Source of the DNA: Rhodospirillales bacterium
GTDB taxonomy: Bacteria; Pseudomonadota; Alphaproteobacteria; Rhodospirillales; 2-02-FULL-58-16
Assembly: GCA_021775195.1 (NCBI GenBank)
Contig: JAJFIG010000251.1
Span: 1-9,015, forward strand
Direction: 5' to 3'
DNA: 9,015 nt
The number at the start of each line of letters is the position of its first letter. The stretch's first letter is position 1. This document shows, in pieces, positions 1-9,015 of the stretch. The translations under genes were made by a program, and so were the position numbers. Under the pieces are notes generated by a model. The model saw nothing but the letters and a program-made list of their open reading frames with translations. It did no database searches and had not been told where the DNA came from.

Positions 1-357
1 TCCGAGGGGGGCCAACCCTTCTTCTTCGGTCCCGATGATACCAAGATCACCGTTTCCCGTGACGGAACCGTATCCACTGTGAACGGCGAGTTGGGGAAGC
101 TGCGCATCGTCCGCTTTGAGAACGACAAGAAGCTCCGTGAGGAAGGCGAGGGACTGTTCGTCACCGATCAGCCACCTCAGGCCGTCGCCGAGCCGGATGT
201 GGTCCAGCACGCGTTGGAAAGTTCCAACGTCCGCCCGATCACCGAAATGGCGCGGATGATTGCAGCCCAGCGGTCCTATGACAGTGTGCGGCGATTCATC
301 AATCGCGAGGATCAACGGATACGAACAATGATGCGCGAACTGACCCGGGCGGCATAA
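1..357 (+). CDS. flgF: Flagellar basal-body rod protein FlgF, C-terminal part (5' end outside window)
   Basis: The reading frame is open from base 1 and ends at TAA 355-357, giving the last 118 residues of a protein whose N-terminus lies outside the window. FlgF is a subunit of the proximal rod of the flagellar motor axle, in the periplasm. The C-terminal rod/hook helix is visible as ESSNVRPITEMARMIAAQRS, matching the family pattern SNV-(x)n-EM-RMI-QR-Y. It is followed by the extended tail with EDQRIRTMMREL, which is typical of alphaproteobacterial FlgF and not of FlgG. A GTG at 79 is only an internal codon. The position just upstream of flgG genes agrees with the usual flgF-flgG order. The gene after it starts 44 bases downstream, so they are probably co-transcribed. 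The FlgF identity, as opposed to another rod paralogue, comes from the tail and gene order. Confidence 0.88.
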   Translation, partial: SEGGQPFFFGPDDTKITVSRDGTVSTVNGELGKLRIVRFENDKKLREEGEGLFVTDQPPQAVAEPDVVQHALESSNVRPITEMARMIAAQRSYDSVRRFINREDQRIRTMMRELTRAA

Positions 358-385
358 GCCCGAGCAGGCAAGACAAGGCAGAACA

Positions 386-400
386 AAAGGACGGGAAACC
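386..400 (+). promoter_or_regulatory. Ribosome binding site of first flgG, shared with second flgG
   Basis: AAGGA at 387-391 lies 10 bases before the ATG at 402. The surrounding string AAAGGACGGGAA recurs at 1256-1267 in front of the second flgG, suggesting that the leader was duplicated along with the gene. Confidence 0.6.
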
Positions 401-401
401 A

Positions 402-1178
402 ATGGACATACTAAGCATCGCGACAACCGGAATGATGGCCCAGGAAGTGGCCGTTGACGTCATCGCCAACAATCTGGCCAACCTCAACACAACCGGCTAC
501 ATGCGGCGCAAGACCGAATTCAGCGACCTGCTCGTCGATACCTGGGATCGCCCCGACGCACCAGGTTCAGCGGCCAATGACCTGGCTCTTGGCGCCGTCG
601 AGTCCGGGTTCGGGGTCGGATTGGTCGCGGTAACCCGGATCCACGAACAGGGGCACCTGCACGCCACGAGCAATTCCTTTGACATGGCGATTGATGGTGA
701 GGGTTTTTTCGAGATCCAGCGTCCCGACGGCACCGCCGCCTACACCCGGGACGGCACGTTCCAGCTCAACGATGCCGGTGATATCGTCACTCACGACGGC
801 TACGTCCTTGCCCCGGGTATCACCGTGCCCAGCAACGCTATCGACGTCACCATCAATAAAAGCGGTGAGGTCCTGGCCAAGATCGAGGGTCAGGTCGCCC
901 TGCAAAATCTGGGCCAGATCCAGCTCACAACCTTCATCAACGCCGCCGGCCTTGACGCCGTCGGGAGCAATCTTCTGGTCGAAACCACGGCCTCCGGCTT
1001 GCCGACTGTGGGCACACCCACCGCCGCCGGTTTGGGTTCGATCCTCCAGGGATACCTGGAAGCATCCAACGTCAACCCGATCCGGGAGATCGCCAACATG
1101 ATCAAGGCCCAGCGAGCCTACGAAATGAATTCCAAGGTGGTTCAGGCCGCCGACGCCATGATGGCCCCGGTGCAATGA
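402..1178 (+). CDS. flgG: FlgG-like distal rod protein, divergent first copy of a tandem pair
   Basis: A 258-residue protein of the flagellar rod/hook family. FlgG builds the distal rod that carries torque through the P and L rings. Visible features are the N-terminal helix with NNLANLNTTGY (residues 23-33), the central domain including TRDGTFQLN (115-123), and the C-terminal helix SNVNPIREIANMIKAQRAYE (222-241). It aligns without gaps to the next gene over 254 residues with about 156 identities (hand count, 61%). Identity falls to about 7 of 30 in residues 41-70, the FlgG-specific segment, where the usual LYQ, PG and LPSG/VPSG patterns read LVD, PD and LALG. The C-terminus stops four residues after MM and lacks the usual LT-x-LR-like end. 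It follows flgF by 44 bases and has no separate promoter that I can see. Membership in the FlgG family is clear. Whether it is a working rod subunit, a specialised isoform or a decaying copy cannot be told, but the frame is intact. Confidence 0.85.
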   Translation: MDILSIATTGMMAQEVAVDVIANNLANLNTTGYMRRKTEFSDLLVDTWDRPDAPGSAANDLALGAVESGFGVGLVAVTRIHEQGHLHATSNSFDMAIDGEGFFEIQRPDGTAAYTRDGTFQLNDAGDIVTHDGYVLAPGITVPSNAIDVTINKSGEVLAKIEGQVALQNLGQIQLTTFINAAGLDAVGSNLLVETTASGLPTVGTPTAAGLGSILQGYLEASNVNPIREIANMIKAQRAYEMNSKVVQAADAMMAPVQ

Positions 1179-1234
1179 ACATTCGGGTGACCGGCGTCTT
1201 GCCACAACGGCACTGACCTGAAGACTGAAACCGG

Positions 1235-1267
1235 AAAACAAAAAAAACCAAAAAGAAAGGACGGGAA
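1235..1267 (+). promoter_or_regulatory. A-rich leader and ribosome binding site of second flgG
   Basis: The 91-base gap between the two flgG genes ends in an A-rich tract (1235-1258, almost only A with a few C and G), unusual in this GC-rich DNA. AAGGA follows at 1257-1261, eight bases before the ATG at 1270. An unstructured A-rich leader often favours ribosome loading; that role is inferred here. Confidence 0.5.
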
Positions 1268-1269
1268 CC

Positions 1270-2055
1270 ATGAGATCACTAGATATCGCCGCGACGGGCA
1301 TGATCGCCCAGCAACGGAACGTCGAGGTCGTGTCAAACAACCTCGCAAACATGAACACCACGGCCTACATGCGCCGACGGCCGGAATTTCATGACCTTCT
1401 TTACCAAAACCTGGTCATCCCCGGGTCCACCTCCTCGTCCTCCGGTACCGTCGTGCCGTCAGGCGTGCAACTGGGCCTCGGGGTCAAACTGGCCGCCGTC
1501 TACCGCATCCACCAACAGGGTAATCTGAGCGCCACCGACAACACCCTGGACCTTGCCATCCAGGGCAAGGGCTTCTTCCAGATCCAGTTGCCCACTGGCG
1601 ACACGGCCTTTACCCGGGACGGCACCTTCCAACTCAACGCCACCGGCAATATCGTCACCCACGACGGTTACACGCTGCAGCCCGGAATCACCGTCCCCAC
1701 CAACGCCGTTGATGTCAACATCAACGCCAGCGGCGAGGTCCTGGTCAAGATCGAGGGCCAGGTGAACCTGCAGAATGTCGGCCAGATCCAGCTCGCCGTG
1801 TTCCCCAACGAAGCCGGCCTCGAGGCCATCGGCGACAATCTGCTGCTCGAGACCCCGGCCTCGGGCACGGCGACCACGGGCAATCCCGCGTCGGTCGGGT
1901 TCGGGTCGATGTTGCAGGGGTTCCTGGAAACCTCCAACGTCAACGCGGTGGAAGAGATTTCCAATCTGATTTCGGCGCAGCGTGCCTATGAAATGAACTC
2001 GAAGGTCATCCAGACCTCCGACGAAATGATGGGCACCCTGACCGCCCTTCGCTAG
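1270..2055 (+). CDS. flgG: Flagellar basal-body distal rod protein FlgG, canonical copy
   Basis: A 261-residue protein of exactly the usual FlgG length. It is the main distal rod subunit, exported by the flagellar type III apparatus and assembled in the periplasm on top of the proximal rod. The N-terminal signature NNLANMNTTAYMRRRPEF (residues 23-40) and LLYQ (43-46) are followed by the FlgG-specific segment with PG, a serine run and VPSGVQLGLGV, all as in standard alphaproteobacterial FlgG. The central domain has TRDGTFQLN (115-123) and the C-terminal helix has TSNVNAVEEISNLISAQRAY. The protein ends in LTALR as expected. AAGGA lies eight bases upstream of the ATG. flgA begins 11 bases after the stop, so the two are translated from one message. 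Because it matches the family better than the upstream copy, this is probably the ancestral flgG of the operon. Confidence 0.95.
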   Translation: MRSLDIAATGMIAQQRNVEVVSNNLANMNTTAYMRRRPEFHDLLYQNLVIPGSTSSSSGTVVPSGVQLGLGVKLAAVYRIHQQGNLSATDNTLDLAIQGKGFFQIQLPTGDTAFTRDGTFQLNATGNIVTHDGYTLQPGITVPTNAVDVNINASGEVLVKIEGQVNLQNVGQIQLAVFPNEAGLEAIGDNLLLETPASGTATTGNPASVGFGSMLQGFLETSNVNAVEEISNLISAQRAYEMNSKVIQTSDEMMGTLTALR

Positions 2056-2066
2056 GGAGACCGGCC

Positions 2067-3038
2067 ATGAGGAAGATCCTGACCCTTTGGCTCCTGGTTG
2101 CCGCGCTGGCGGCCACCCCGGAAGCCGCCAGCGCGGCGGCGCCTATTACCACCGAGCCCGTCAGCCTGCGCCAATTCGTCGTCGTCGCCGACACGGTCGT
2201 GCGGTTGGGCGATTTGTTTACCAATGCCGGCGACAAGGCCGATGCCATTATCGCCTACGCCCCGAAACCGGGCCGGCATACGGTTTTCGACGCTCGCTGG
2301 CTGTATCGTGTCGCCCACGCCTACGGATTGGCTTGGCGGCCTCTCGGCGCCAAGGAGCAAACCCGGGTCACCCGCGACAGTGTCGCCATCGGCCGCGACG
2401 AAATCGGTGAGCACATTCTCGCCGCCCTCGTCGAAAAGGGCGCCGAGCCCGATATGGTGGTAGCGTTGAGCAACAGCCTGCTGCGCATCCATGTCCCCGG
2501 CGACTCGAGCACGACCATTGCCGTCGAGGATGCCACGTACGCCCCCCGGTCCCGCCGCTTCACCGCTATCCTGGTCGCGCCGGCCGGCGATCCCGCGGCC
2601 CAGCGCATCCGCGTCACTGGGCGCCTACACCAGATCACGGAGGTACCTGTACCGGCCCGCCTCATCGGCAAGGGAAAGGTGATCACCAGGTCCGACATCC
2701 AGTGGATAAAGGTACGCTCGCGTCTACTGCAACGGAACATCGTCCGTGATGCGGCGGACCTCATCGGCAAGGCCCCGCGTCGGGGCTTGCGCGCCGGCGT
2801 TCCGGTGCGCGCCACCGATGTCCGTCGGCCCGTCCTGGTTCCCAAGGGAAGCCTGGTGGTGATGGTATTGGGCACGCCCTACATGCGCCTGACCGTCCGC
2901 GGCCGGGCCCTGGAAGACGGTTCCAGCGGCCAGACCATACGCATCGCCAACATGCAAAGCCACAAGGTGATTGCCGCCGAAGTGACCGGTTCGGGTACCG
3001 TCGTCGTCCGTTCCGCCGACACCCTGGCGATGAATTAG
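2067..3038 (+). CDS. flgA: Flagellar P-ring assembly chaperone FlgA
   Basis: A 323-residue secreted protein. FlgA is the periplasmic chaperone that helps FlgI form the P ring around the rod. Residues 1-23 form a signal peptide (MRK start, hydrophobic LTLWLLVAALAA core, likely cleavage after ASA at 23). The C-terminal half holds the SAF/FlgA domain, from about residue 192: VPVPARLIGKGKVITRSDIQ (193-212), then IGKAPRRGLRAGVPVRATDV (233-252), then a beta-rich end with VRGRALEDGSSGQTIRIAN (277-295). Length is typical of alphaproteobacterial FlgA, longer than the enterobacterial form. The ribosome site AGGGAGA (2054-2060) overlaps the flgG stop codon and lies six bases before the ATG, supporting translational coupling. 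Its partner flgI is not in this window, so P-ring assembly depends on a copy elsewhere. Confidence 0.95.
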   Translation: MRKILTLWLLVAALAATPEAASAAAPITTEPVSLRQFVVVADTVVRLGDLFTNAGDKADAIIAYAPKPGRHTVFDARWLYRVAHAYGLAWRPLGAKEQTRVTRDSVAIGRDEIGEHILAALVEKGAEPDMVVALSNSLLRIHVPGDSSTTIAVEDATYAPRSRRFTAILVAPAGDPAAQRIRVTGRLHQITEVPVPARLIGKGKVITRSDIQWIKVRSRLLQRNIVRDAADLIGKAPRRGLRAGVPVRATDVRRPVLVPKGSLVVMVLGTPYMRLTVRGRALEDGSSGQTIRIANMQSHKVIAAEVTGSGTVVVRSADTLAMN

Positions 3039-3048
3039 GAGACTCGTC

Positions 3049-3810
3049 ATGATCAGCAACAACACCCGCATCGTGAGTACCCTGGTCGCCGTTGGCGTCG
3101 TTATCGCGGTCGTGCCCGGATGCAATCTGCTGACCCGCATATCCGAGGTCGGAGACGGACCCAAGCTGACCAATATCAGCAATCCCACGGCACGCCCGGA
3201 TTACCGCCCGGTGAGCATGCCCATGCCGGCGCCCCAGTCAGCCGAGGACAACCCCAACTCTCTGTGGCGGGCGGGCGCTCGCGCTTTCTTCAAGGACACC
3301 CGCGCCAAGACGATCGGCGACATCCTGACGGTCAAGCTCGACCTCAAGGACAAGGCGACAATGGACAACAAGACCGAGCGCGAACGCGACGACAAGGAAA
3401 AGTCGGACGTGACTAAGCTGCTCGGTCTCGAGGCAGAGTTCGCCAAGGTCCTGCCCCAGGCGGTGGACGCGACCTCGCTCATCGATTTCGAGAACAAGCA
3501 CGAGACCAAGGGCGACGGCTCCATCAACCGCAGCGAAGATATCCAACTTACCTTTGCCGCCGTGATCACCCAAATTCTGCCCAACGGCGCCCTGGTCGTC
3601 CTCGGACGCCAGGAGATCCGGGTCAACTACGAGCTCCGCGAACTCATGCTGACCGGCGTCGTCCGTCCAGAGGACATCGAATCCGATAACAGCGTCGATC
3701 ACACAAAGATTGCCGAAATGCGCGTCGCCTATGGTGGCCGCGGTACTCTGAGCGACATCCAGCAACCGCGCTGGGGCACCCAGATTTGGGACATCATATT
3801 CCCGTTCTAG
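3049..3810 (+). CDS. flgH: Flagellar L-ring lipoprotein FlgH
   Basis: A 253-residue precursor of the outer-membrane L ring, the bushing through which the rod passes. The N-terminus is a lipoprotein signal peptide: a basic start, a hydrophobic stretch (residues 9-23) and the lipobox VPGC with the lipidated cysteine at 25. Family hallmarks follow: SLW (71-73), RAFFKDTRAKTIGDILTVKL (79-98, twenty residues), GALVVLGRQEIRVNYELREL (180-199), TGVVRPEDI (202-210) and GGRGTLSDIQQPRWG (229-243). Proline at the -2 position of the lipobox is slightly unusual. AGGAGA (3037-3042) overlaps the flgA stop and lies six bases from the ATG. It is the last gene of the operon, followed at once by a terminator. Confidence 0.97.
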   Translation: MISNNTRIVSTLVAVGVVIAVVPGCNLLTRISEVGDGPKLTNISNPTARPDYRPVSMPMPAPQSAEDNPNSLWRAGARAFFKDTRAKTIGDILTVKLDLKDKATMDNKTERERDDKEKSDVTKLLGLEAEFAKVLPQAVDATSLIDFENKHETKGDGSINRSEDIQLTFAAVITQILPNGALVVLGRQEIRVNYELRELMLTGVVRPEDIESDNSVDHTKIAEMRVAYGGRGTLSDIQQPRWGTQIWDIIFPF

Positions 3811-3935: not shown

Positions 3936-4352
3936 TCAGTCGTCCCGGTGGGTTTTTTCCATGCGCTCGTGGCGTTCCTGGGCTTCGATACTGAGGGTCG
4001 CGATCGGCCGCGCCTCCAGCCGTGACAGGCTTATGGGTTCGTTGGTGTCCTCGCAAAAACCGTAGGTACCGTCTTCGATCCGTTTGATCGCCTCATCGAT
4101 CTTGGCGATCAGCTTGCGGGCCCTGTCACGGGTTCGCAGTTCCAGCGCCCGCTCGGCCTCCACCGTCGCGCGGTCGGCGATATCGGCTTCGAGCTCACCA
4201 CCCTGCTGAAGAAGCTGGAGCGTTTCATTCGATTCATCCAGAAGTTCGTGCCTCCACGTCAACAGACGCTGCCGGAAATATTCCCGCATTTTCGGATTCA
4301 TGAACGGTTCTTTATCCGAAGGCCGGTAATTCGCTGGCAGGGTGACATTCAT
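3936..4352 (-). CDS. dksA: DksA-type RNA polymerase-binding regulator, single-cysteine zinc finger
   Basis: A 138-residue DksA/TraR-family protein, which enters the RNA polymerase secondary channel and works with ppGpp to reset transcription in starvation. The coiled-coil tip carries D57, D60 and A62 within the motif DIADRAT, matching the E. coli tip residues D71, D74 and A76. The C-terminal globular part has GTYGFCEDTNEPISLSRLEA (95-114) and RPIATLSIEAQERHERMEK (115-133). Of the four zinc cysteines of E. coli DksA only C100 remains; the others read T103, S121 and A124, a pattern known for alphaproteobacterial DksA. The frame is open up to an ATG at 4442, but a promoter at 4390-4418 lies inside that extension, and AAGGGAG (4363-4369) sits 10 bases before the ATG at 4352, so the shorter start is chosen. 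It lies downstream of fliX on the same strand and converges on flgH. Confidence 0.93.
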   Translation of the reverse strand: MNVTLPANYRPSDKEPFMNPKMREYFRQRLLTWRHELLDESNETLQLLQQGGELEADIADRATVEAERALELRTRDRARKLIAKIDEAIKRIEDGTYGFCEDTNEPISLSRLEARPIATLSIEAQERHERMEKTHRDD

Positions 4353-4389
4353 TTCTTCGTGACTCCCTTGTTGCTTTTGGCCGCGCCGG

Positions 4390-4418
4390 AATATAGGTGC
4401 GGCGCTCCGCCATCGCAA
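4390..4418 (-). promoter_or_regulatory. Predicted sigma70-type promoter of dksA
   Basis: On the - strand, TTGCGA (4418-4413) and TATATT (4395-4390) are separated by exactly 17 bases, matching four of six and five of six consensus bases. Transcription would start near 4383, leaving a leader of about 30 bases before the ATG at 4352. This makes dksA independent of fliX and argues against the longer N-terminus. Confidence 0.65.
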
Positions 4419-4420
4419 GA

Positions 4421-4435
4421 GAGGTTTTTCACCTC
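4421..4435. repeat. Small hairpin between fliX and dksA
   Basis: GAGGT (4421-4425) and ACCTC (4431-4435) flank a five-base loop, just upstream of the dksA -35 element. On the - strand only a weak T-poor sequence follows, so at best it is a partial terminator for fliX. The rest of the 153-base gap (4353-4505) shows only the dksA promoter and leader. Confidence 0.3.
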
Positions 4436-4505
4436 GACGCATAATCTCGTGAGGTTGATCGGTGAAGGTCGATATAGGTTCGGGATCGAGAAAAGATCGG
4501 GGAAA

Positions 4506-4946
4506 TCAAATGTCTCGGGTCAGTTTTGCAATCTCGACCTCAGCTCGAAGCTCGATTTCGTCGATGATTTCCCGCAGCCGCGGATCATCGGTCAGGCGTT
4601 TTTGTGCCCGCATGGTCTGGGCAAGCGCCGCCAGTCTATCCTTGGGGACCACACCGCCCAGGAGGTCGAGGCGCAGAGCTTCGAGATGGTCCAGCAACCG
4701 TTCGCCGTATTGCCGGGCCAACCCGCGGGATCGTCCATCAGTGGCATCACCGACTTCCTGGACGGAGAGAATCGACTCGACGGTACTAACCGGAGCACCC
4801 TCTACGGCCGCGTCTGACTCTGCCGCCCCGGCGGTTTCCTTCAGGCGCTGAGCGAATTCGCCCCCTTTCCCGGAGGCCGCCTTCTTGCGCCGGGTGCTGG
4901 AGGCCGTCTTGGTGGATTCCAGACCTTTTACCTTCATGGTCGCCAT
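4506..4946 (-). CDS. fliX: Flagellar assembly regulator FliX
   Basis: A 146-residue protein of the alphaproteobacterial FliX family. In Caulobacter FliX couples completion of the early basal body to the sigma54 activator FlbD and so to late flagellar gene expression; the same role is inferred here. The N-terminal third is basic, low in complexity and likely flexible (TKTASSTRRKKAASGKGG, 12-29). The conserved part begins at SILSVQEVGD (58-67) and continues through GERLLDHLEALRLDLLGG (81-98), VPKDRLAALAQ (100-110) and TDDPRLREIIDEIELRAEVE (119-138), ending AKLTRDI. It has no signal peptide or membrane segment. The ATG at 4946 has AGGGA (4957-4953) six bases upstream; a second ATG three codons in (4937) has worse spacing. 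It is transcribed away from the iron operon and towards dksA. In related genomes the P-ring gene flgI usually lies divergent to fliX, but not here. Confidence 0.9.
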   Translation of the reverse strand: MATMKVKGLESTKTASSTRRKKAASGKGGEFAQRLKETAGAAESDAAVEGAPVSTVESILSVQEVGDATDGRSRGLARQYGERLLDHLEALRLDLLGGVVPKDRLAALAQTMRAQKRLTDDPRLREIIDEIELRAEVEIAKLTRDI

Positions 4947-5391
4947 CGATATTCCCTAACACGAAATACGGCCCTGACGTGGTTTCCAGCCCGGTCGGCA
5001 CCACCCCTGTCGGGCGGACCCGCCATGCATACTCTTGTCCAGTATGGAATCATACAACATTGGCGGTCCTTGGGGAATCACCGCCCACCCAGCGCCCTTT
5101 TGGTGGGGCCAAAACTTCGGGCCGGGTCCGACGCTCCTCGCCCTCGAAATTTCCGTTCAATCTCGGGGTTACCCCGTCCGCTCCATTCCGAACAGGCGCG
5201 ATCCGGTCCATCATTTGTTCACGGGTATTTCCTGGTTCCCTTTCCGTGGCCTACCACCTTCACTCCCACCGACCGTCCATGTCTGCCAAAGCAGTCCGTC
5301 GCTGGTTTCTTTCCTTGTTTCAAATCAAGGGCTTCTAAGTCCTTTCATATCTAGGGTCATTCGGGTTATTAAAGGAGCGAGTGATTCTTGG
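4947..5391. other. Gene-poor gap between fliX and the iron operon, with inverted repeats
   Basis: This 445-base gap must hold the fliX promoter, but I could not pick a convincing -35/-10, sigma54 or CtrA-type site. No stop trinucleotide occurs in any + frame from 4978 to 5335, so three overlapping long open frames exist there; none has a good ribosome site or a protein sequence I recognise. On the - strand a 50-odd-residue frame (complement of roughly 5050-5210) begins ATGATG, but its third-position GC is low for this genome. Inverted repeats: GTATG/CATAC (5042-5046 with 5051-5055), GGCGGT/ACCGCC (5062-5067 with 5080-5085), TTTTGG/CCAAAA (5098-5103 with 5109-5114) and CGGGG/CCCCG (5164-5168 with 5172-5176). 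I found no flgI remnant. Confidence 0.5.
5094..5122. repeat. Compound hairpin in the fliX upstream gap
   Basis: TTTTGG (5098-5103) pairs with CCAAAA (5109-5114) around TGGGG. An outer GCCC (5094-5097) can pair with GGGC (5119-5122) if the four bases 5115-5118 bulge out. No T-run follows on either strand, so it is not a standard terminator. It could be part of a structured leader or small RNA; that is speculative. Confidence 0.35.
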
Positions 5392-5412
5392 AAATGAGAA
5401 TGATTTGCATTT
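5392..5412 (+). promoter_or_regulatory. Fur-box-like operator of the Fe(III) transport operon
   Basis: AAATGAGAAT (5392-5401) and ATTTGCATTT (5403-5412) flank a central G; eight of ten arm positions are complementary. The core TGAGAATGATTTGCA matches the 7-1-7 Fur consensus (TGATAAT-N-ATTATCA) at 11 of 14 arm positions. It covers the -35 element of the predicted promoter, so bound Fe-Fur would block RNA polymerase under iron-replete conditions. Confidence 0.75.
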
Positions 5413-5433
5413 GCAGGTCCGCCTGGCTATGAT
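5405..5433 (+). promoter_or_regulatory. Predicted sigma70-type promoter of the Fe(III) transport operon
   Basis: TTGCAT (5405-5410) and TATGAT (5428-5433) are 17 bases apart, with five of six matches at -10. The start of transcription would be near 5440. This leaves only about 10 bases before the ATG at 5450, favouring the later ATG at 5495 as the protein start. Confidence 0.65.
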
Positions 5434-5448
5434 GCGGCCAATGGAATA

Positions 5449-5473
5449 AATGCGATTCATTCTAAGTCGCATT
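5449..5473. repeat. Perfect dyad in the 5' leader of the iron operon
   Basis: AATGCGA (5449-5455) and TCGCATT (5467-5473) are exact reverse complements separated by 11 bases. The dyad lies just downstream of the predicted transcription start and seven bases before GGAG (5480-5483). It could be a second regulator site or an RNA hairpin near the ribosome site. Confidence 0.45.
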
Positions 5474-5494
5474 AAATATGGAGCAAAATCAACA

Positions 5495-6553
5495 ATGAAT
5501 ATGCGACCATGTTCAAAGTACTTCGGCAAATTGGGCCAATTGGGGACAGTGTGCACGGTTTTCGCACTTTTCCTGACCGTCACCCCGCCTGTTTCAGCGG
5601 CGGAGATCAATCTTTATTCCTATCGCCAACCCTTCTTACTCAAGCCGCTCCTAACGGCGTTCACCAAGGAGACCGGGATCAAAGTCAACGTTGTCTATGC
5701 CAAGAAGGGAATGTTGGAGCGTCTCAAGGCCGAGGGTATCAATAGTCCCGCAGATGCCGTTCTCACCGTCGACATCGGCCGCCTTAGTGATCTCGTTACC
5801 GCCGGCCTGGTACAACCCGTCAAGTCGCCAGTTCTGGAAACCAACATCCCACCCCAGTACCGTCATCCCATGGGCCTTTGGTTCGGTCTCACCACCCGCG
5901 CCCGCATTGTCGCCGCCCACAAGACCCGCGTGAAGCCGGGCGAGATCGGTAGTTACGAGGATCTCGCTGCACCCCGGTTCAAGGGTCGGGTATGCAGCCG
6001 TTCGGGCAAACACGCGTACAATATCTCCCTTGTCGCCTCCATCATCGTCGCCAAGGGTGAAAAGGCGGCCCAGGCATGGGCGGCGGCGGTCAAGGGCAAC
6101 CTCGCCCGCAAGCCCCAGGGCAACGACCGTGCCCAAGCCCGGGCTATCAAGGAAGGCGTCTGCGACGTCGCTCTTTTGAACACCTATTACATGGGCAAGA
6201 TGGCGACCAACGAGAAGAAGCCCCAGCAGAAGGAATGGGCCAAGGCCATCCGGGTCGTTTTCCCCAACCAGGGCAATCGCGGTACCCACGTCAACCTGAG
6301 TGGTGTCGCCGTGACCAAGAGCGCCAAGCACCGCGCCGAGGCCGTCAGGCTGCTCGAATTTCTGAGCGGCCCCTTCGCCCAGAAGATCTATGCCGAGCAG
6401 AATTTTGAGTACCCGGTCAAGGCGGGAACGCCTCTGCACCCGATGGTCGCTTCCTGGGGCCGGTTCACGGCCGATACTGTCAGCCTGGCGGAGGTCGCCA
6501 GGTATCGGACCCTGGCCTCGAAAATCATGGACAGGGTGTCCTTCGATCACTAA
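5495..6553 (+). CDS. Periplasmic Fe(III)-binding protein of an ABC importer (FbpA/FutA type)
   Basis: A 352-residue extracellular solute-binding protein that captures ferric iron in the periplasm and delivers it to the permease. Residues 1-35 form a signal peptide with a hydrophobic core (TVCTVFALFLTVT) and cleavage likely after VSA at 35. The mature protein opens with EINLYSYRQPFL. The tyrosines expected as iron ligands in FutA-like proteins are present: Y43 in YSYRQ, Y175 in SGKHAYN, and Y231-Y232 in NTYYMGKM. The FPNQGNRGTHVNLSGVAVTK segment (256-275) and the C-terminal EFLSGPFAQKIYAEQNFEYP (288-307) are also typical. The frame extends upstream to ATG 5450, but that codon lies almost on the predicted transcription start; ATG 5495 has GGAG 11 bases before it, and ATG 5501 is a further option. 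It is the first gene of a Fur-box operon with permease and ATPase. The metal (Fe(III)) is inferred from ligands and operator. Confidence 0.9.
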   Translation: MNMRPCSKYFGKLGQLGTVCTVFALFLTVTPPVSAAEINLYSYRQPFLLKPLLTAFTKETGIKVNVVYAKKGMLERLKAEGINSPADAVLTVDIGRLSDLVTAGLVQPVKSPVLETNIPPQYRHPMGLWFGLTTRARIVAAHKTRVKPGEIGSYEDLAAPRFKGRVCSRSGKHAYNISLVASIIVAKGEKAAQAWAAAVKGNLARKPQGNDRAQARAIKEGVCDVALLNTYYMGKMATNEKKPQQKEWAKAIRVVFPNQGNRGTHVNLSGVAVTKSAKHRAEAVRLLEFLSGPFAQKIYAEQNFEYPVKAGTPLHPMVASWGRFTADTVSLAEVARYRTLASKIMDRVSFDH

Positions 6554-6565
6554 GCAGGCCGGGGC

Positions 6566-6592
6566 CCCCGGGACGGACCCACCGTCCCGGGG
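6566..6592 (+). promoter_or_regulatory. Intercistronic hairpin between binding protein and permease genes
   Basis: CCCCGGGACGG (6566-6576) and CCGTCCCGGGG (6582-6592) make a perfect 11-base stem of almost pure GC with loop ACCCA, 12 bases after the binding-protein stop. No T-run follows, so it is probably not a full terminator. In binding-protein operons such hairpins typically protect the upstream mRNA and give more binding protein than permease. Confidence 0.7.
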
Positions 6593-6632
6593 CAACCCGC
6601 CCGGCACAGTTCAAGGAGCAACAGCGGGAGTT

Positions 6633-6644
6633 ATGACGGTTTGA
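6633..6644 (+). other. Three-codon reading frame ATG ACG GTT TGA overlapping the permease start
   Basis: The only ATG near the start of the permease (6633) reads three codons and stops at TGA 6642-6644, which overlaps the TTG at 6641. GGGAG (6626-6630) lies two bases before this ATG and 10 before the TTG. One extra T in the run 6640-6642 would join the ATG to the permease frame. It may be a minimal leader, a chance ATG, or a sign of an indel at the real start. Confidence 0.35.
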
Positions 6645-8359
6645 AATCCCTGGGCGCCAATTCGGACGCCGTGCTCGGCCGCGCTTCTGCGCGGCGTTTG
6701 CGCTTTGATAACTGGACCGCCGCGACCGCCCTCATCGCCGCCATGGCGGCGGTGCCGACGGTTGCCGTCGTTACCATGGCGTTCATGCCCACAGACAACA
6801 TCTGGCCACACCTCGCCTCCACTGTCCTGCCCCTTTACGTCCGCACCACCCTGGGCCTCATGCTCGGCGTCGGTCTGGGCACCTTCGTCATCGGCATGGG
6901 TACCGCCTGGCTGGTGACCATGTGCCGGTTTCCCGGCCGCCAGATCTTCGAGTGGGCGCTTTTGCTGCCCATGGCCATTCCCGCCTATGTCGTCGCCTAC
7001 GTTTACACCGACCTGCTCGAATTCGCCGGCCCCGTGCAGGGATTGTTGCGCTCGCAGTTCGGCTGGACCACGAAGGCCGAGTACTGGTTTCCCGAGATCC
7101 GTTCGCTTGGCGGCGCCATCGCCGTCATGACCCTGGCCTTCTACCCTTACGTCTATCTGCTTTCGCGGGCGGCTTTCCTGGAGCAGTCCGTCTGCGTTCT
7201 CGAGGTAAGCCGCACCCTGGGCCGCGGCCCCTGGCGCAGTTTCTTCCTGGTCGCCCTGCCCCTGGCCCGGCCGGCGATCGTCATCGGCCTCAGCCTGGTG
7301 CTGATGGAGACCCTCAACGATTTCGGCACCGTCGACTATTTTGCCGTCGCCACCTTCACCGCCGGCATACTCGATGTCTGGCTCAACATGAACAACACAT
7401 CGGGTGCTGCCCAGCTCGCCTCTGTGCTCCTGGTATTCGTCCTCGCCCTCATTTATTTCGAGCGCCGCGGCCGCCGGGCTCAGCGCTATCACCACACCTC
7501 GGCCCGCTACCGGGCACTGCCTGGCTACCCGTTGCAAGGACGCAGCGCAGCGTTGGCCACCGCCGCCTGCTTGCTCCCTGTGGTCCTCGGTTTCCTCGTC
7601 CCAGCCGGCGTGCTCTTGAACTACGCCCTCACCCACTACGCCGCCACCCTCGAGACAGACATCGTCCGCCTTACGCTCAACAGCCTCGGCCTCAGCCTGC
7701 TCGCCGCCATGATCACTGTCGCCGTCGGCGCCTTCCTCGCCTACGGTGTGCGCCTCAAGGGTAAGCCCGCTCTCACTGCGGCGGCGCGATTTGCCAGTCT
7801 CGGCTACGCGGTTCCCGGCGCCGTTCTCGCCATCGGCGTGATCATTCCCACCGCGTGGCTTGAGAATACGGTGGACGGGTTCATGCGCGCCACCTTCGGC
7901 GTCTCCACCGGACTGCTCCTCAGCGGCACGGTTGCCGCCGTCACCATGGGTTACGTCGTGCGTTTCCTGGCTCTCTCCTTCGGCACCGTCGAGGCCAGTC
8001 TCGCCAAGGTCACCGCCAGCATGGACGGCGCCGCCCGGACACTTGGCTCCGGGCCGGCGGCAACCCTTCGCCGTGTTCATCTGCCGCTCATGCGGGGCAG
8101 CATTCTCACCGCCGCGATCCTTGTTTTCGTCGACTGCATGAAGGAACTCCCGATGACGGTCATCCTGCGGCCGTTCAACTTCCACACCCTGGCCACTTTC
8201 GTGCACGAATACGCATCCGACGAATTGCTCGCTGAAAGTTCACTGGCCGCCCTCACCATCGTCGCCTCCGGTATCCTTCCGGTGATCATCCTCAGCCGTA
8301 CCATCACCCAGTCCCGCCCCGGCCACGGGCGTTCCAGCAACGGCAAGGCCAAGCCATGA
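6641..8359 (+). CDS. Fe(III) ABC transporter permease, fused two-domain type (FbpB-like)
   Basis: A 572-residue inner-membrane protein made of two binding-protein-dependent permease domains in tandem, the usual layout of FbpB/ThiP-type permeases with about 12 membrane segments. Hydrophobic segments include residues 26-48, 69-92, 104-121, 156-176, 211-230, 259-273, 303-328, 346-370, 387-404, 422-445, 488-505 and 534-553. Each half has an EAA-type loop that contacts the ATPase: SRTLGRGPWRSFFLVALPLA (190-209) and ARTLGSGPAATLRRVHLPLM (465-484). It would pass iron from the periplasmic binding protein across the membrane. The start is uncertain: TTG 6641 has GGGAG at 10 bases; a GTG at 6671 has a poor ribosome site; ATG 6633 is out of frame. 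The stop overlaps the ATPase start by ATGA (8356-8359), so the two are translationally coupled. Confidence 0.9.
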   Translation: MKSLGANSDAVLGRASARRLRFDNWTAATALIAAMAAVPTVAVVTMAFMPTDNIWPHLASTVLPLYVRTTLGLMLGVGLGTFVIGMGTAWLVTMCRFPGRQIFEWALLLPMAIPAYVVAYVYTDLLEFAGPVQGLLRSQFGWTTKAEYWFPEIRSLGGAIAVMTLAFYPYVYLLSRAAFLEQSVCVLEVSRTLGRGPWRSFFLVALPLARPAIVIGLSLVLMETLNDFGTVDYFAVATFTAGILDVWLNMNNTSGAAQLASVLLVFVLALIYFERRGRRAQRYHHTSARYRALPGYPLQGRSAALATAACLLPVVLGFLVPAGVLLNYALTHYAATLETDIVRLTLNSLGLSLLAAMITVAVGAFLAYGVRLKGKPALTAAARFASLGYAVPGAVLAIGVIIPTAWLENTVDGFMRATFGVSTGLLLSGTVAAVTMGYVVRFLALSFGTVEASLAKVTASMDGAARTLGSGPAATLRRVHLPLMRGSILTAAILVFVDCMKELPMTVILRPFNFHTLATFVHEYASDELLAESSLAALTIVASGILPVIILSRTITQSRPGHGRSSNGKAKP

Positions 8360-9015
8360 GCGGTCTCAGCATGAAACGGGTCTCTCACGCCTACGACGGC
8401 CACCGGGTCGTGGACGACGTTTCCCTTGAGGTTCGGCCCGGCGAGTTGGTCTGCCTGTTGGGGCCGTCTGGTTGCGGCAAGACGACGCTGCTCCGCCTCG
8501 CCGCCGGCCTCGAGTTGCTCCAGCACGGTCAGGTGAGCGTCGGCGGCCGCTCCGTCGGCAACGCCGTCGACGACCGCCACGTGCCCCCCGAGGACCGGGG
8601 CGTCGGTTTGATGTTCCAGGACTACGCCCTGTTTCCCCACCTGACCATTTTCGAGAACATTGCCTTCGGCCTGTTCAACAGCCCGCCGGAACGCCGGCAA
8701 TGGATCACCAGCGCCCTGGCGCAGATGGAAATGGCGGATTTCGCCGACAGTTATCCGCACACTCTGTCCGGCGGCCAGCAGCAGCGCGCCGCCCTGTTGC
8801 GGGCCCTGGCTCCCGAGCCCGGGGTGCTGTTGTTGGACGAGCCCTTCTCCGGCCTCGACGTCACCCGCCGCGCCCAGGTCCGCGAGGAGACCCTGGGCCT
8901 GCTCAAACAGACCGGCGTCGCCACCCTGATGGTCACCCACGACCCGGAAGAGGCGATGTTCATGGCCGACCGCATCCTGGTCATGGTCGAGGGCCGCATC
9001 GTCCAGGCCGGAACC
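8356..9015 (+). CDS. Fe(III) ABC transporter ATP-binding protein (FbpC-like), 3' end outside window
   Basis: The ATG at 8356 overlaps the permease TGA. The frame stays open to the window edge, giving 220 residues of an ABC ATPase, while members of this family are usually about 340-360 residues with a C-terminal regulatory domain. All catalytic motifs are intact: Walker A GPSGCGKT (36-43), Q-loop Q88 in FQDYALFPHLT, signature LSGGQ (137-141) followed by QQRAALLRALA, Walker B VLLLDEP (157-163), D-loop SGLD (165-168) and H-loop H195 in VTHDPEEAM. The phrase HVPPEDRGVGLMFQDYALFP (75-94) is typical of the iron/thiamine/spermidine importer group. It hydrolyses ATP on the cytoplasmic face to drive the permease just upstream. 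A second in-frame ATG at codon 6 is less likely given the ATGA coupling. Iron as substrate comes from context. Confidence 0.93.
   Translation, partial: MSGLSMKRVSHAYDGHRVVDDVSLEVRPGELVCLLGPSGCGKTTLLRLAAGLELLQHGQVSVGGRSVGNAVDDRHVPPEDRGVGLMFQDYALFPHLTIFENIAFGLFNSPPERRQWITSALAQMEMADFADSYPHTLSGGQQQRAALLRALAPEPGVLLLDEPFSGLDVTRRAQVREETLGLLKQTGVATLMVTHDPEEAMFMADRILVMVEGRIVQAGT

What the first reader, a model, noticed from the sequence alone, without database searches (positions are those of the whole stretch)
402..2055. Tandem pair of divergent flgG genes in a basal-body operon
Two full-length FlgG-family genes follow flgF where one is normal. They align without gaps over 254 residues with about 61% identity by hand count. 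Both frames are intact, so this is an old, maintained duplication rather than a recent repeat. Two rod isoforms could form successive zones of the distal rod, give a longer or mechanically different rod, or serve two flagellar states. The function is inference; the duplication is visible.
Basis: partly seen in the sequence, partly recalled or inferred. Interest (0 to 1): 0.75.

Follow-up and report, generated by a model that had tools for sequence, protein, structure and literature searches.

The report
A second, rewritten flagellar rod protein
This uncultured bacterium has two intact genes, side by side, for the flagellum's drive-shaft protein FlgG; the second is the ordinary one, and the first is a diverged, kept copy rewritten mainly at its ends and in a loop that stiffens the shaft in Salmonella, so it likely builds a separate short zone at the base of the outer shaft.

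Summary
In detail: two intact FlgG genes (402-1178, 1270-2055; 60% identical) lie between flgF and flgA-flgH. Copy 2 is the order's ordinary FlgG; copy 1 is a divergent paralogue. Tandem pairs were seen in 5 of 317 genomes of the order (location of a second copy unseen in 6) and in none outside it in a 385-genome class sample. Of the best 120 metagenome and genome homologues listed, 28 are of copy-1 type (one 92% identical). In another family a similar FlgG paralogue sits alone, away from flagellar genes. The change is focused: the window copies share 3 of 24 L-stretch residues but 83 of 121 in domain D1. In Salmonella and Campylobacter the L-stretch reaches onto earlier-assembled subunits, and in Salmonella it stiffens the rod and carries most polyrod mutations. 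The acidic loop-tip residue is kept in 68 of 70 ordinary FlgGs and 0 of 34 paralogues; the export motif is kept in 33 of 34. Best reading, inferred: copy 1 is an exported rod subunit that seats on FlgF, beneath ordinary FlgG. Not shown: expression, incorporation or position. Whether all paralogues share one origin is unsettled, and orphan copies kept where flagellar genes were lost argue for another or residual role.

The parts
1..357 (+). flgF, 3' part (open at the window edge)
   Evidence: FlgF / hook-basal-body models NF009332, NF009331, TIGR02490 partial matches; Pfam Flg_bbr_C
386..397 (+). AAAGGACGGGAA, likely ribosome-binding site of copy 1
   Evidence: read from the sequence; the same 12 bases precede copy 2; function inferred
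402..1178 (+). flgG copy 1 (divergent paralogue, 258 aa)
   Evidence: TIGR02488 320.4 bits, over cut-off; paralogue branch
519..533 (+). copy 1 export-gate motif FxxxPhi (FSDLL, residues 40-44)
   Evidence: present in 33 of 34 paralogues and 70 of 70 ordinary FlgGs; its export role is from PMC8983047 passages
534..605 (+). copy 1 L-stretch segment (residues 45-68), rewritten
   Evidence: 3 of 24 residues identical to copy 2, against 83 of 121 in D1
1161..1175 (+). copy 1 C-terminal tail (residues 254-258), shortened
   Evidence: 1 of 5 aligned residues identical; the last residue of ordinary FlgG (261) has no counterpart in any full-length paralogue
1256..1267 (+). AAAGGACGGGAA, likely ribosome-binding site of copy 2
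   Evidence: read from the sequence; function inferred
1270..2055 (+). flgG copy 2 (ordinary FlgG, 261 aa)
   Evidence: TIGR02488 349.7 bits; median 79% identity to 69 ordinary FlgGs
1402..1473 (+). copy 2 L-stretch segment (residues 45-68)
   Evidence: conserved in ordinary FlgGs; window copy 2 itself has lost R49 and D57
2067..3038 (+). flgA (P-ring chaperone)
   Evidence: TIGR03170 117.5 bits, cut-off 54.65
3049..3810 (+). flgH (L-ring)
   Evidence: NF001305 304.7 bits, cut-off 255; Pfam FlgH

Best explanation
The operon encodes an ordinary distal-rod protein FlgG (copy 2) and, just before it, a diverged FlgG paralogue (copy 1) that is likely exported and likely assembled as a short zone at the base of the distal rod, seated on FlgF and capped by ordinary FlgG. 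Shown: both genes are intact FlgG-family genes; copy 1 keeps domain D1, the core of the terminal helices and the export motif, but is rewritten in the L-stretch and at both ends, and lacks the acidic L-stretch-tip residue. From published Salmonella and Campylobacter structures: the L-stretch lies on earlier-assembled (lower) subunits and the FlgG N-terminal helix touches the subunit below, so what changed is mainly what a subunit meets underneath, while the D1 and helix surfaces on which later subunits dock stayed FlgG-like. Inferred: such a protein suits the layer where what lies underneath is not FlgG, that is on FlgF, in line with the gene order flgF-flgG1-flgG2 and the assembly order FlgB-FlgC-FlgF-FlgG; its tip, without the acidic residue, would grip the P ring less.
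For: Family membership. Copy 2 is orthologous to single FlgGs, copy 1 is not. Divergence between 34 paralogues and 70 ordinary FlgGs: 17 of the 26 most divergent columns lie in the 40 columns of L-stretch, N-end and C-tail (Mann-Whitney p 8e-7; hypergeometric p 6e-10); for the five tandem copy 1s alone, 12 of 26; a control comparison (seven beta/gammaproteobacterial FlgGs against 64 ordinary ones) shows no such focus (5 of 26, p 0.37). The L-stretch keeps its length in all 34. Acidic residue at position 57 (Salmonella Glu-58): 68 of 70 ordinary, 0 of 34 paralogues, 0 of 28 database copy-1 proteins. FxxxPhi kept in 33 of 34. Structural direction and polyrod sites from passages of PMC6681337, PMC5288503, PMC5097172, PMC8298488; zone order from PMC11673145. 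In the three tandem genomes of the window's family copy 2 has V for R49, which is R in 63 of 65 single or non-tandem FlgGs: both L-stretches changed, as partners might.
Against: No expression, export or basal-body data. The three-region test was framed after seeing the ranked columns. Three of the five copy 1s keep the glycine at position 52. Copy-1 L-stretches differ strongly between sublineages (window against P0002 0.38, against G003 copy 1 0.21), and G003/G009 copy 1 has dN/dS 0.70 against 0.18 for copy 2, which also fits relaxed constraint. In family f27 the paralogue stands outside the operon, and it persists where flagellar genes were lost, which a pure rod part would not need. R49 and D57 in copy 2 could have changed once in a common ancestor. 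No model of the assembled rod could be made; the monomer models are poor outside D1.
Confidence: 0.4

Rival explanations
1. Copy 1 mixes with or replaces copy 2 and makes the distal rod longer or mechanically different, for example under another growth state.
For: Most known polyrod mutations of Salmonella FlgG fall in or near the same L-stretch (PMC6681337, PMC8298488 passages), where copy 1 is rewritten. Copy 1 and copy 2 L-stretches both changed in the window's family.
Against: Same operon and same leader string, so no sign of separate control. The terminal ends changed as well as the loop. G65, a polyrod site, is kept in 32 of 34 paralogues, though the window's copy 1 has A.
Confidence: 0.2
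2. A duplicate under relaxed constraint with little or no function of its own.
For: Faster evolution: G003/G009 copy 1 dN/dS 0.70 against 0.18 for copy 2; fast L-stretch change between sublineages; lost or never present in most relatives.
Against: Open, full-length frames in all 34 paralogues but one cut by a contig end; window against G003 copy 1 dN/dS 0.25, orphan pairs 0.04-0.21; export motif kept in 33 of 34; D1 about as well kept as in ordinary FlgG.
Confidence: 0.17
3. The paralogue family has a role outside the rod (for instance an exported or cytoplasmic regulator of rod or P-ring building), of which the tandem copy is one arrangement.
For: In family f27 it is a single gene away from flagellar genes. 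Three f27 genomes, G035, G046 and G043, give no FlhA and no FlgI hit, yet keep it intact; in G035 the flagellar cluster is visibly deleted (a FliF start joined to a FlhF end), while the pairwise dN/dS of its copy with that of G085 is 0.06.
Against: The window's copy is in the rod operon. The losses look recent (remnants remain), so low pairwise dN/dS may be mostly from before the loss. Missing hits can be assembly gaps: the window's own genome and G052, which have ordinary FlgG, also lack a FlgI hit. The export motif is kept.
Confidence: 0.13
4. Copy 1 is a junction layer at the top of the distal rod, between FlgG and the hook protein FlgE.
For: A paralogue with a changed L-stretch could ease the change from stiff rod to flexible hook, whose FlgE has a shorter L-stretch in Salmonella (PMC11673145 passage).
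Against: A top layer would still sit on FlgG and should keep the downward contacts, which are the ones that changed. L-stretch length is not shortened. Published work describes a direct rod-hook join without a junction protein (PMC5288503, PMC5097172 passages).
Confidence: 0.07
5. Copy 1 belongs to a second flagellar system or came in by transfer from outside the order.
For: Genomes elsewhere in the class with two FlgGs have them at separate loci (5 of 5), as dual systems do.
Against: Copy 1 falls inside the order's FlgG tree, not with outside FlgGs, and sits in the main operon. The f27 orphans whose surroundings were read in full (4) have no second gene cluster beside them.
Confidence: 0.03

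Closest known systems
FlgG, distal-rod protein (TIGR02488; Salmonella FlgG, PDB 7cgo and others)
   Same: Both copies pass the FlgG model; D0, Dc/L-stretch and D1 regions align without gaps in the L-stretch; export motif kept.
   Different: Copy 1 has a rewritten L-stretch, a shortened C-tail and a changed N-end, and lacks the acidic L-stretch-tip residue.
Salmonella FlgG polyrod mutants (P52L, G53R, G65V, G183R, deletion 54-57)
   Same: Changes fall in the same loop; the window's copy 1 has D where G53 is and A where G65 is.
   Different: Laboratory mutants with abnormal long rods; copy 1 is a natural gene kept beside a normal FlgG. No rod phenotype is known.
flgG_1/flgG_2 or FlgG1/FlgG2 names of Campylobacterota (recalled; names seen in listings)
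   Same: Two neighbouring names of the FlgG kind.
   Different: As recalled, one of those pairs is FlgF-type; here both are FlgG by model score and a separate flgF stands upstream.
Dual flagellar systems (for example Bradyrhizobium, PMC6406911, seen in a listing)
   Same: Two FlgGs in one genome.
   Different: Those have two gene sets; here one operon holds both genes.

Membership tests
FlgG (TIGR02488 equivalog) | Score over the curated cut-off of 252.75 bits | tested here: met
   Copy 1 320.4, copy 2 349.7 bits
FlgG | Flg_bb_rod, LlgE_F_G_D1 and Flg_bbr_C domains in order | tested here: met
   All three over cut-off in both copies
FlgG | Full-length L-stretch (FlgG-specific segment absent from Salmonella FlgE) | tested here: met
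   No gap in residues 45-68 in any of 34 paralogues; the sequence, not the length, differs
FlgG | Conserved L-stretch letters and C-terminal end of the order's FlgGs | tested here: not met
   Copy 1 has 3 of 24 and 1 of 5 residues of copy 2; so copy 1 is a FlgG-family paralogue, not an orthologue of the ordinary FlgG
FlgG | Rod-type export signals (gate recognition motif, N-terminal hydrophobic residues) | tested here: met
   FxxxPhi in 33 of 34 paralogues; hydrophobic residues at 4, 6 and 11 in most; export itself untested
FlgG | Presence in the distal rod | not testable with these tools
   Needs basal-body mass spectrometry or cryo-EM
FlgF (TIGR02490) | Score over the curated cut-off of 178.5 bits | tested here: not met
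   158.5 and 154.9 bits
FlgE hook protein | FlgE equivalog score and extra domain D2 | tested here: not met
   FlgE models far below cut-off; 258 aa with no D2 insert

The most novel reading that the evidence does not exclude
An extra rod zone protein: a FlgG paralogue that inserts a layer between FlgF and FlgG whose loop tip cannot hold the P ring, so that it sets where the P ring stops and the stiff rod begins; in one family the same paralogue left the operon and works without a complete flagellum.
Probability: 0.25. Interest if true: 0.75.

Novelty: new variant of a known kind. Interest (0 to 1): 0.5.

Why it matters
In the well-studied rods the distal part is described as one protein, FlgG (PMC11673145 passage). 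A natural paralogue rewritten in the element that governs stiffness and length and that faces the P ring would give a natural test of how the rod knows where to change zone, how long to grow and where the P ring sits. Full-text searches for duplicated, paralogous, second or FlgG-like flgG brought up no description of such a pair in the open library searched; subscription papers are mostly not in it.

Tried and rejected
Assembly artefact: rejected, because the same order stands in other assemblies. FlgF in disguise: rejected by model scores. Second flagellar system: not supported. Plasmid origin: no match of 1-3810 in the plasmid collection in near mode.

One duplication for all paralogues: supported by the full tree (one branch of 29 orphans and 5 copy 1s, 97/97), but this support leans on the rewritten columns. 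With these left out (57 of 112 rows, 215 columns) the tree splits them: window, G003, G009 and G011 copy 1s together (99/98), orphans with G016 copy 1 apart; holding all together is not rejected (AU p 0.427), nor is a late duplication within the window's family (AU p 0.155). Left open.

Structure models of both copies were collected: mean pLDDT 57.0 and 56.4, usable only in D1, so I drew nothing from them and ran no fold search. FlgI lysines that face the L-stretch tip in Salmonella were not mapped: the alignment was not carried that far. Alignment A2 was made and not used further.

Full report
Observation. The window holds flgF (3' part), two FlgG genes, flgA and flgH in one direction, then dksA and fliX on the other strand and an ABC transporter. 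The two FlgGs are 60% identical, without gaps until the last residues. Both pass the FlgG model and miss the FlgF model. The same 12 bases stand before both start codons. The finding is right as described.

Which copy is which. Against 69 ordinary FlgGs of the order, copy 2 is 62-87% identical (median 79%; 64 of 69 at 70% or more), copy 1 only 50-64% (median 60%). Copy 2 is therefore the ordinary FlgG and copy 1 the derived one. In six relatives of the same family a single FlgG follows FlgF (L008, L010, L013, L017, L021, L023).

Distribution. In 317 genomes of the order adjacent FlgG pairs were seen in five: the window's genome, G003 and G009 (same family; 3 of the 10 family genomes, 6 with one copy and G007 with none found), G011 and G016. 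Another 32 genomes, all in family f27, have two or more FlgG hits; for 26 of these I saw both places, on different contigs or far apart, and for six (G071, G077, G078, G080, G082, G083) the second place was not listed. Not every first-look candidate was scored, so counts are lower bounds. In a 385-genome class sample, five genomes outside the order have two hits, in all five at separate places. A search of 5.8 billion proteins scored 8000 candidates; of the 120 best listed, 28 carry the copy-1 type motif, the nearest 92% identical to copy 1 (P0001).

Orphan relatives. In f27 the second FlgG is a lone gene: in the four cases read in full no flagellar gene is beside it (L110, L111, L118, L119), with a D-Ala-D-Ala carboxypeptidase neighbour in the two whose neighbour was scanned, L118 and L119. 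The tree uses 29 such proteins from 28 genomes.

Phylogeny. The full tree puts the 5 tandem copy 1s and the 29 orphans on one branch (97/97), and window, G003 and G009 copy 1 together (99/96). Without the L-stretch and end columns the second result remains (now with G011, 99/98), the first does not; one clade is not rejected (p 0.427) and neither is a late duplication within the family (p 0.155). If origins are separate, the same elements were rewritten more than once.

What changed. Ranking columns by divergence between 34 paralogues and 70 ordinary FlgGs pointed to the L-stretch and the ends; I then tested these regions, so the test is not blind. 17 of the top 26 columns fall in these 40 of 261 columns. 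In the window pair identity is 3 of 24 in the L-stretch, 4 of 8 at the N-end, 1 of 5 at the C-tail, 83 of 121 in D1 and 25 of 37 in the C-terminal helix. Beta/gammaproteobacterial FlgGs against ordinary ones show no such focus (5 of 26). The last residue of ordinary FlgG is present in 70 of 70 and in no paralogue (33 of the 34 reach that end; one is cut by a contig end). The glycine matching Salmonella G53 is kept in 70 of 70 ordinary and 3 of 34 paralogues, the three being tandem copy 1s. The acidic tip residue matching Salmonella Glu-58 is kept in 68 of 70 and 0 of 34. The L-stretch length is unchanged in all 34.

What the places mean. From passages only: in Salmonella the FlgG-specific segment makes the rod straight and rigid, and most polyrod mutations lie there (PMC5288503, PMC6681337); the L-stretch touches subunits at -5, -10, -11 and -16, numbered by order of building in the Campylobacter hook, and is uncovered at the proximal end (PMC6681337, PMC5097172); the FlgG N-terminal helix touches the lower subunit (PMC5288503); Glu-58 at the tip is discussed as facing FlgI Lys-63 and Lys-95, and G53R or G183R polyrods bear no P ring (PMC8298488). 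So copy 1 has changed mainly what meets earlier-assembled parts. Assembly runs FliE, FlgB, FlgC, FlgF, FlgG (PMC11673145). A subunit with FlgG-like upper faces and non-FlgG-like lower contacts fits best on FlgF, at the base of the distal rod; this is inference.

Constraint. The export-gate motif FxxxPhi is kept in 33 of 34 paralogues and 70 of 70 ordinary FlgGs (meaning from PMC8983047 passages). dN/dS: window against G003, copy 1 0.25, copy 2 0.15; G003 against G009, copy 1 0.70, copy 2 0.18 at equal dS (0.076, 0.075); nine orphan pairs 0.04-0.21; many dS values are high, so these are rough. Copy-1 L-stretches are alike within the G003 type (0.81) but not between types (0.17-0.38). So copy 1 is constrained, less than copy 2, and least in its L-stretch.

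A possible link between the copies. In window, G003 and G009, copy 2 has V for R49 (R in 63 of 65 ordinary FlgGs without a tandem partner); D57 is D in 1 of 5 tandem copy 2s and 64 of 65 others. Shared ancestry makes these counts weaker than they look.

Against the reading. Three f27 genomes with an intact orphan give no FlhA or FlgI hit. In G035 a FliF start is joined to a FlhF end and a hook gene is altered, with fliX and dksA kept, so the loss is real there; G046 keeps FliG, FlgF, FliL and FliM and may be partly lost or partly unassembled; G043 is 79% complete. G052 (ordinary FlgG present) has neither a FlgI nor a FliF hit and the window's genome no FlgI hit, so absence alone is weak. If orphans last without a flagellum, the paralogue may do more than build a rod.

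Verdict. A real, rare and unequal FlgG pair; a new variant of a known kind. The base-zone mechanism is the best fit but untested.

Noticed in passing
L115:2-1165 (-) and L117:732-2018 (-), contigs C152 and C283 of the window's genome: Two different FlgE-type hook proteins in the window's genome, one cut by a contig end; several relatives also show two FlgE-like hits.
   Followed up: partly
L110, L111, L118, L119 and other f27 loci: A FlgG paralogue as a lone gene outside any flagellar cluster, in most f27 genomes examined.
   Followed up: partly
L170 (G035:C6): A deleted flagellar cluster: a FliF start joined to a FlhF end, an altered hook gene, fliX and dksA kept.
   Followed up: partly
L171 (G046:C36): flgF stands next to dksA without flgG, flgA and flgH, while FliG, FliL and FliM are kept and no FlhA, FlgI or FliF was found.
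   Followed up: partly
L020 / L065 (G036): The ordinary FlgG of this genome has one in-frame TAG.
   Followed up: no
window 1402-1473: The window's copy 2 also departs from ordinary FlgGs in its L-stretch (R49, R50 and D57 lost).
   Followed up: partly
G064 (L160, L161): One f27 genome has two orphan FlgG paralogues besides its ordinary FlgG.
   Followed up: no
window 3936-9015: dksA and fliX on the minus strand, then an ABC transporter (binding protein, permease, ATPase); dksA, fliX and an ABC transporter also stand by the degraded cluster of G035.
   Followed up: no
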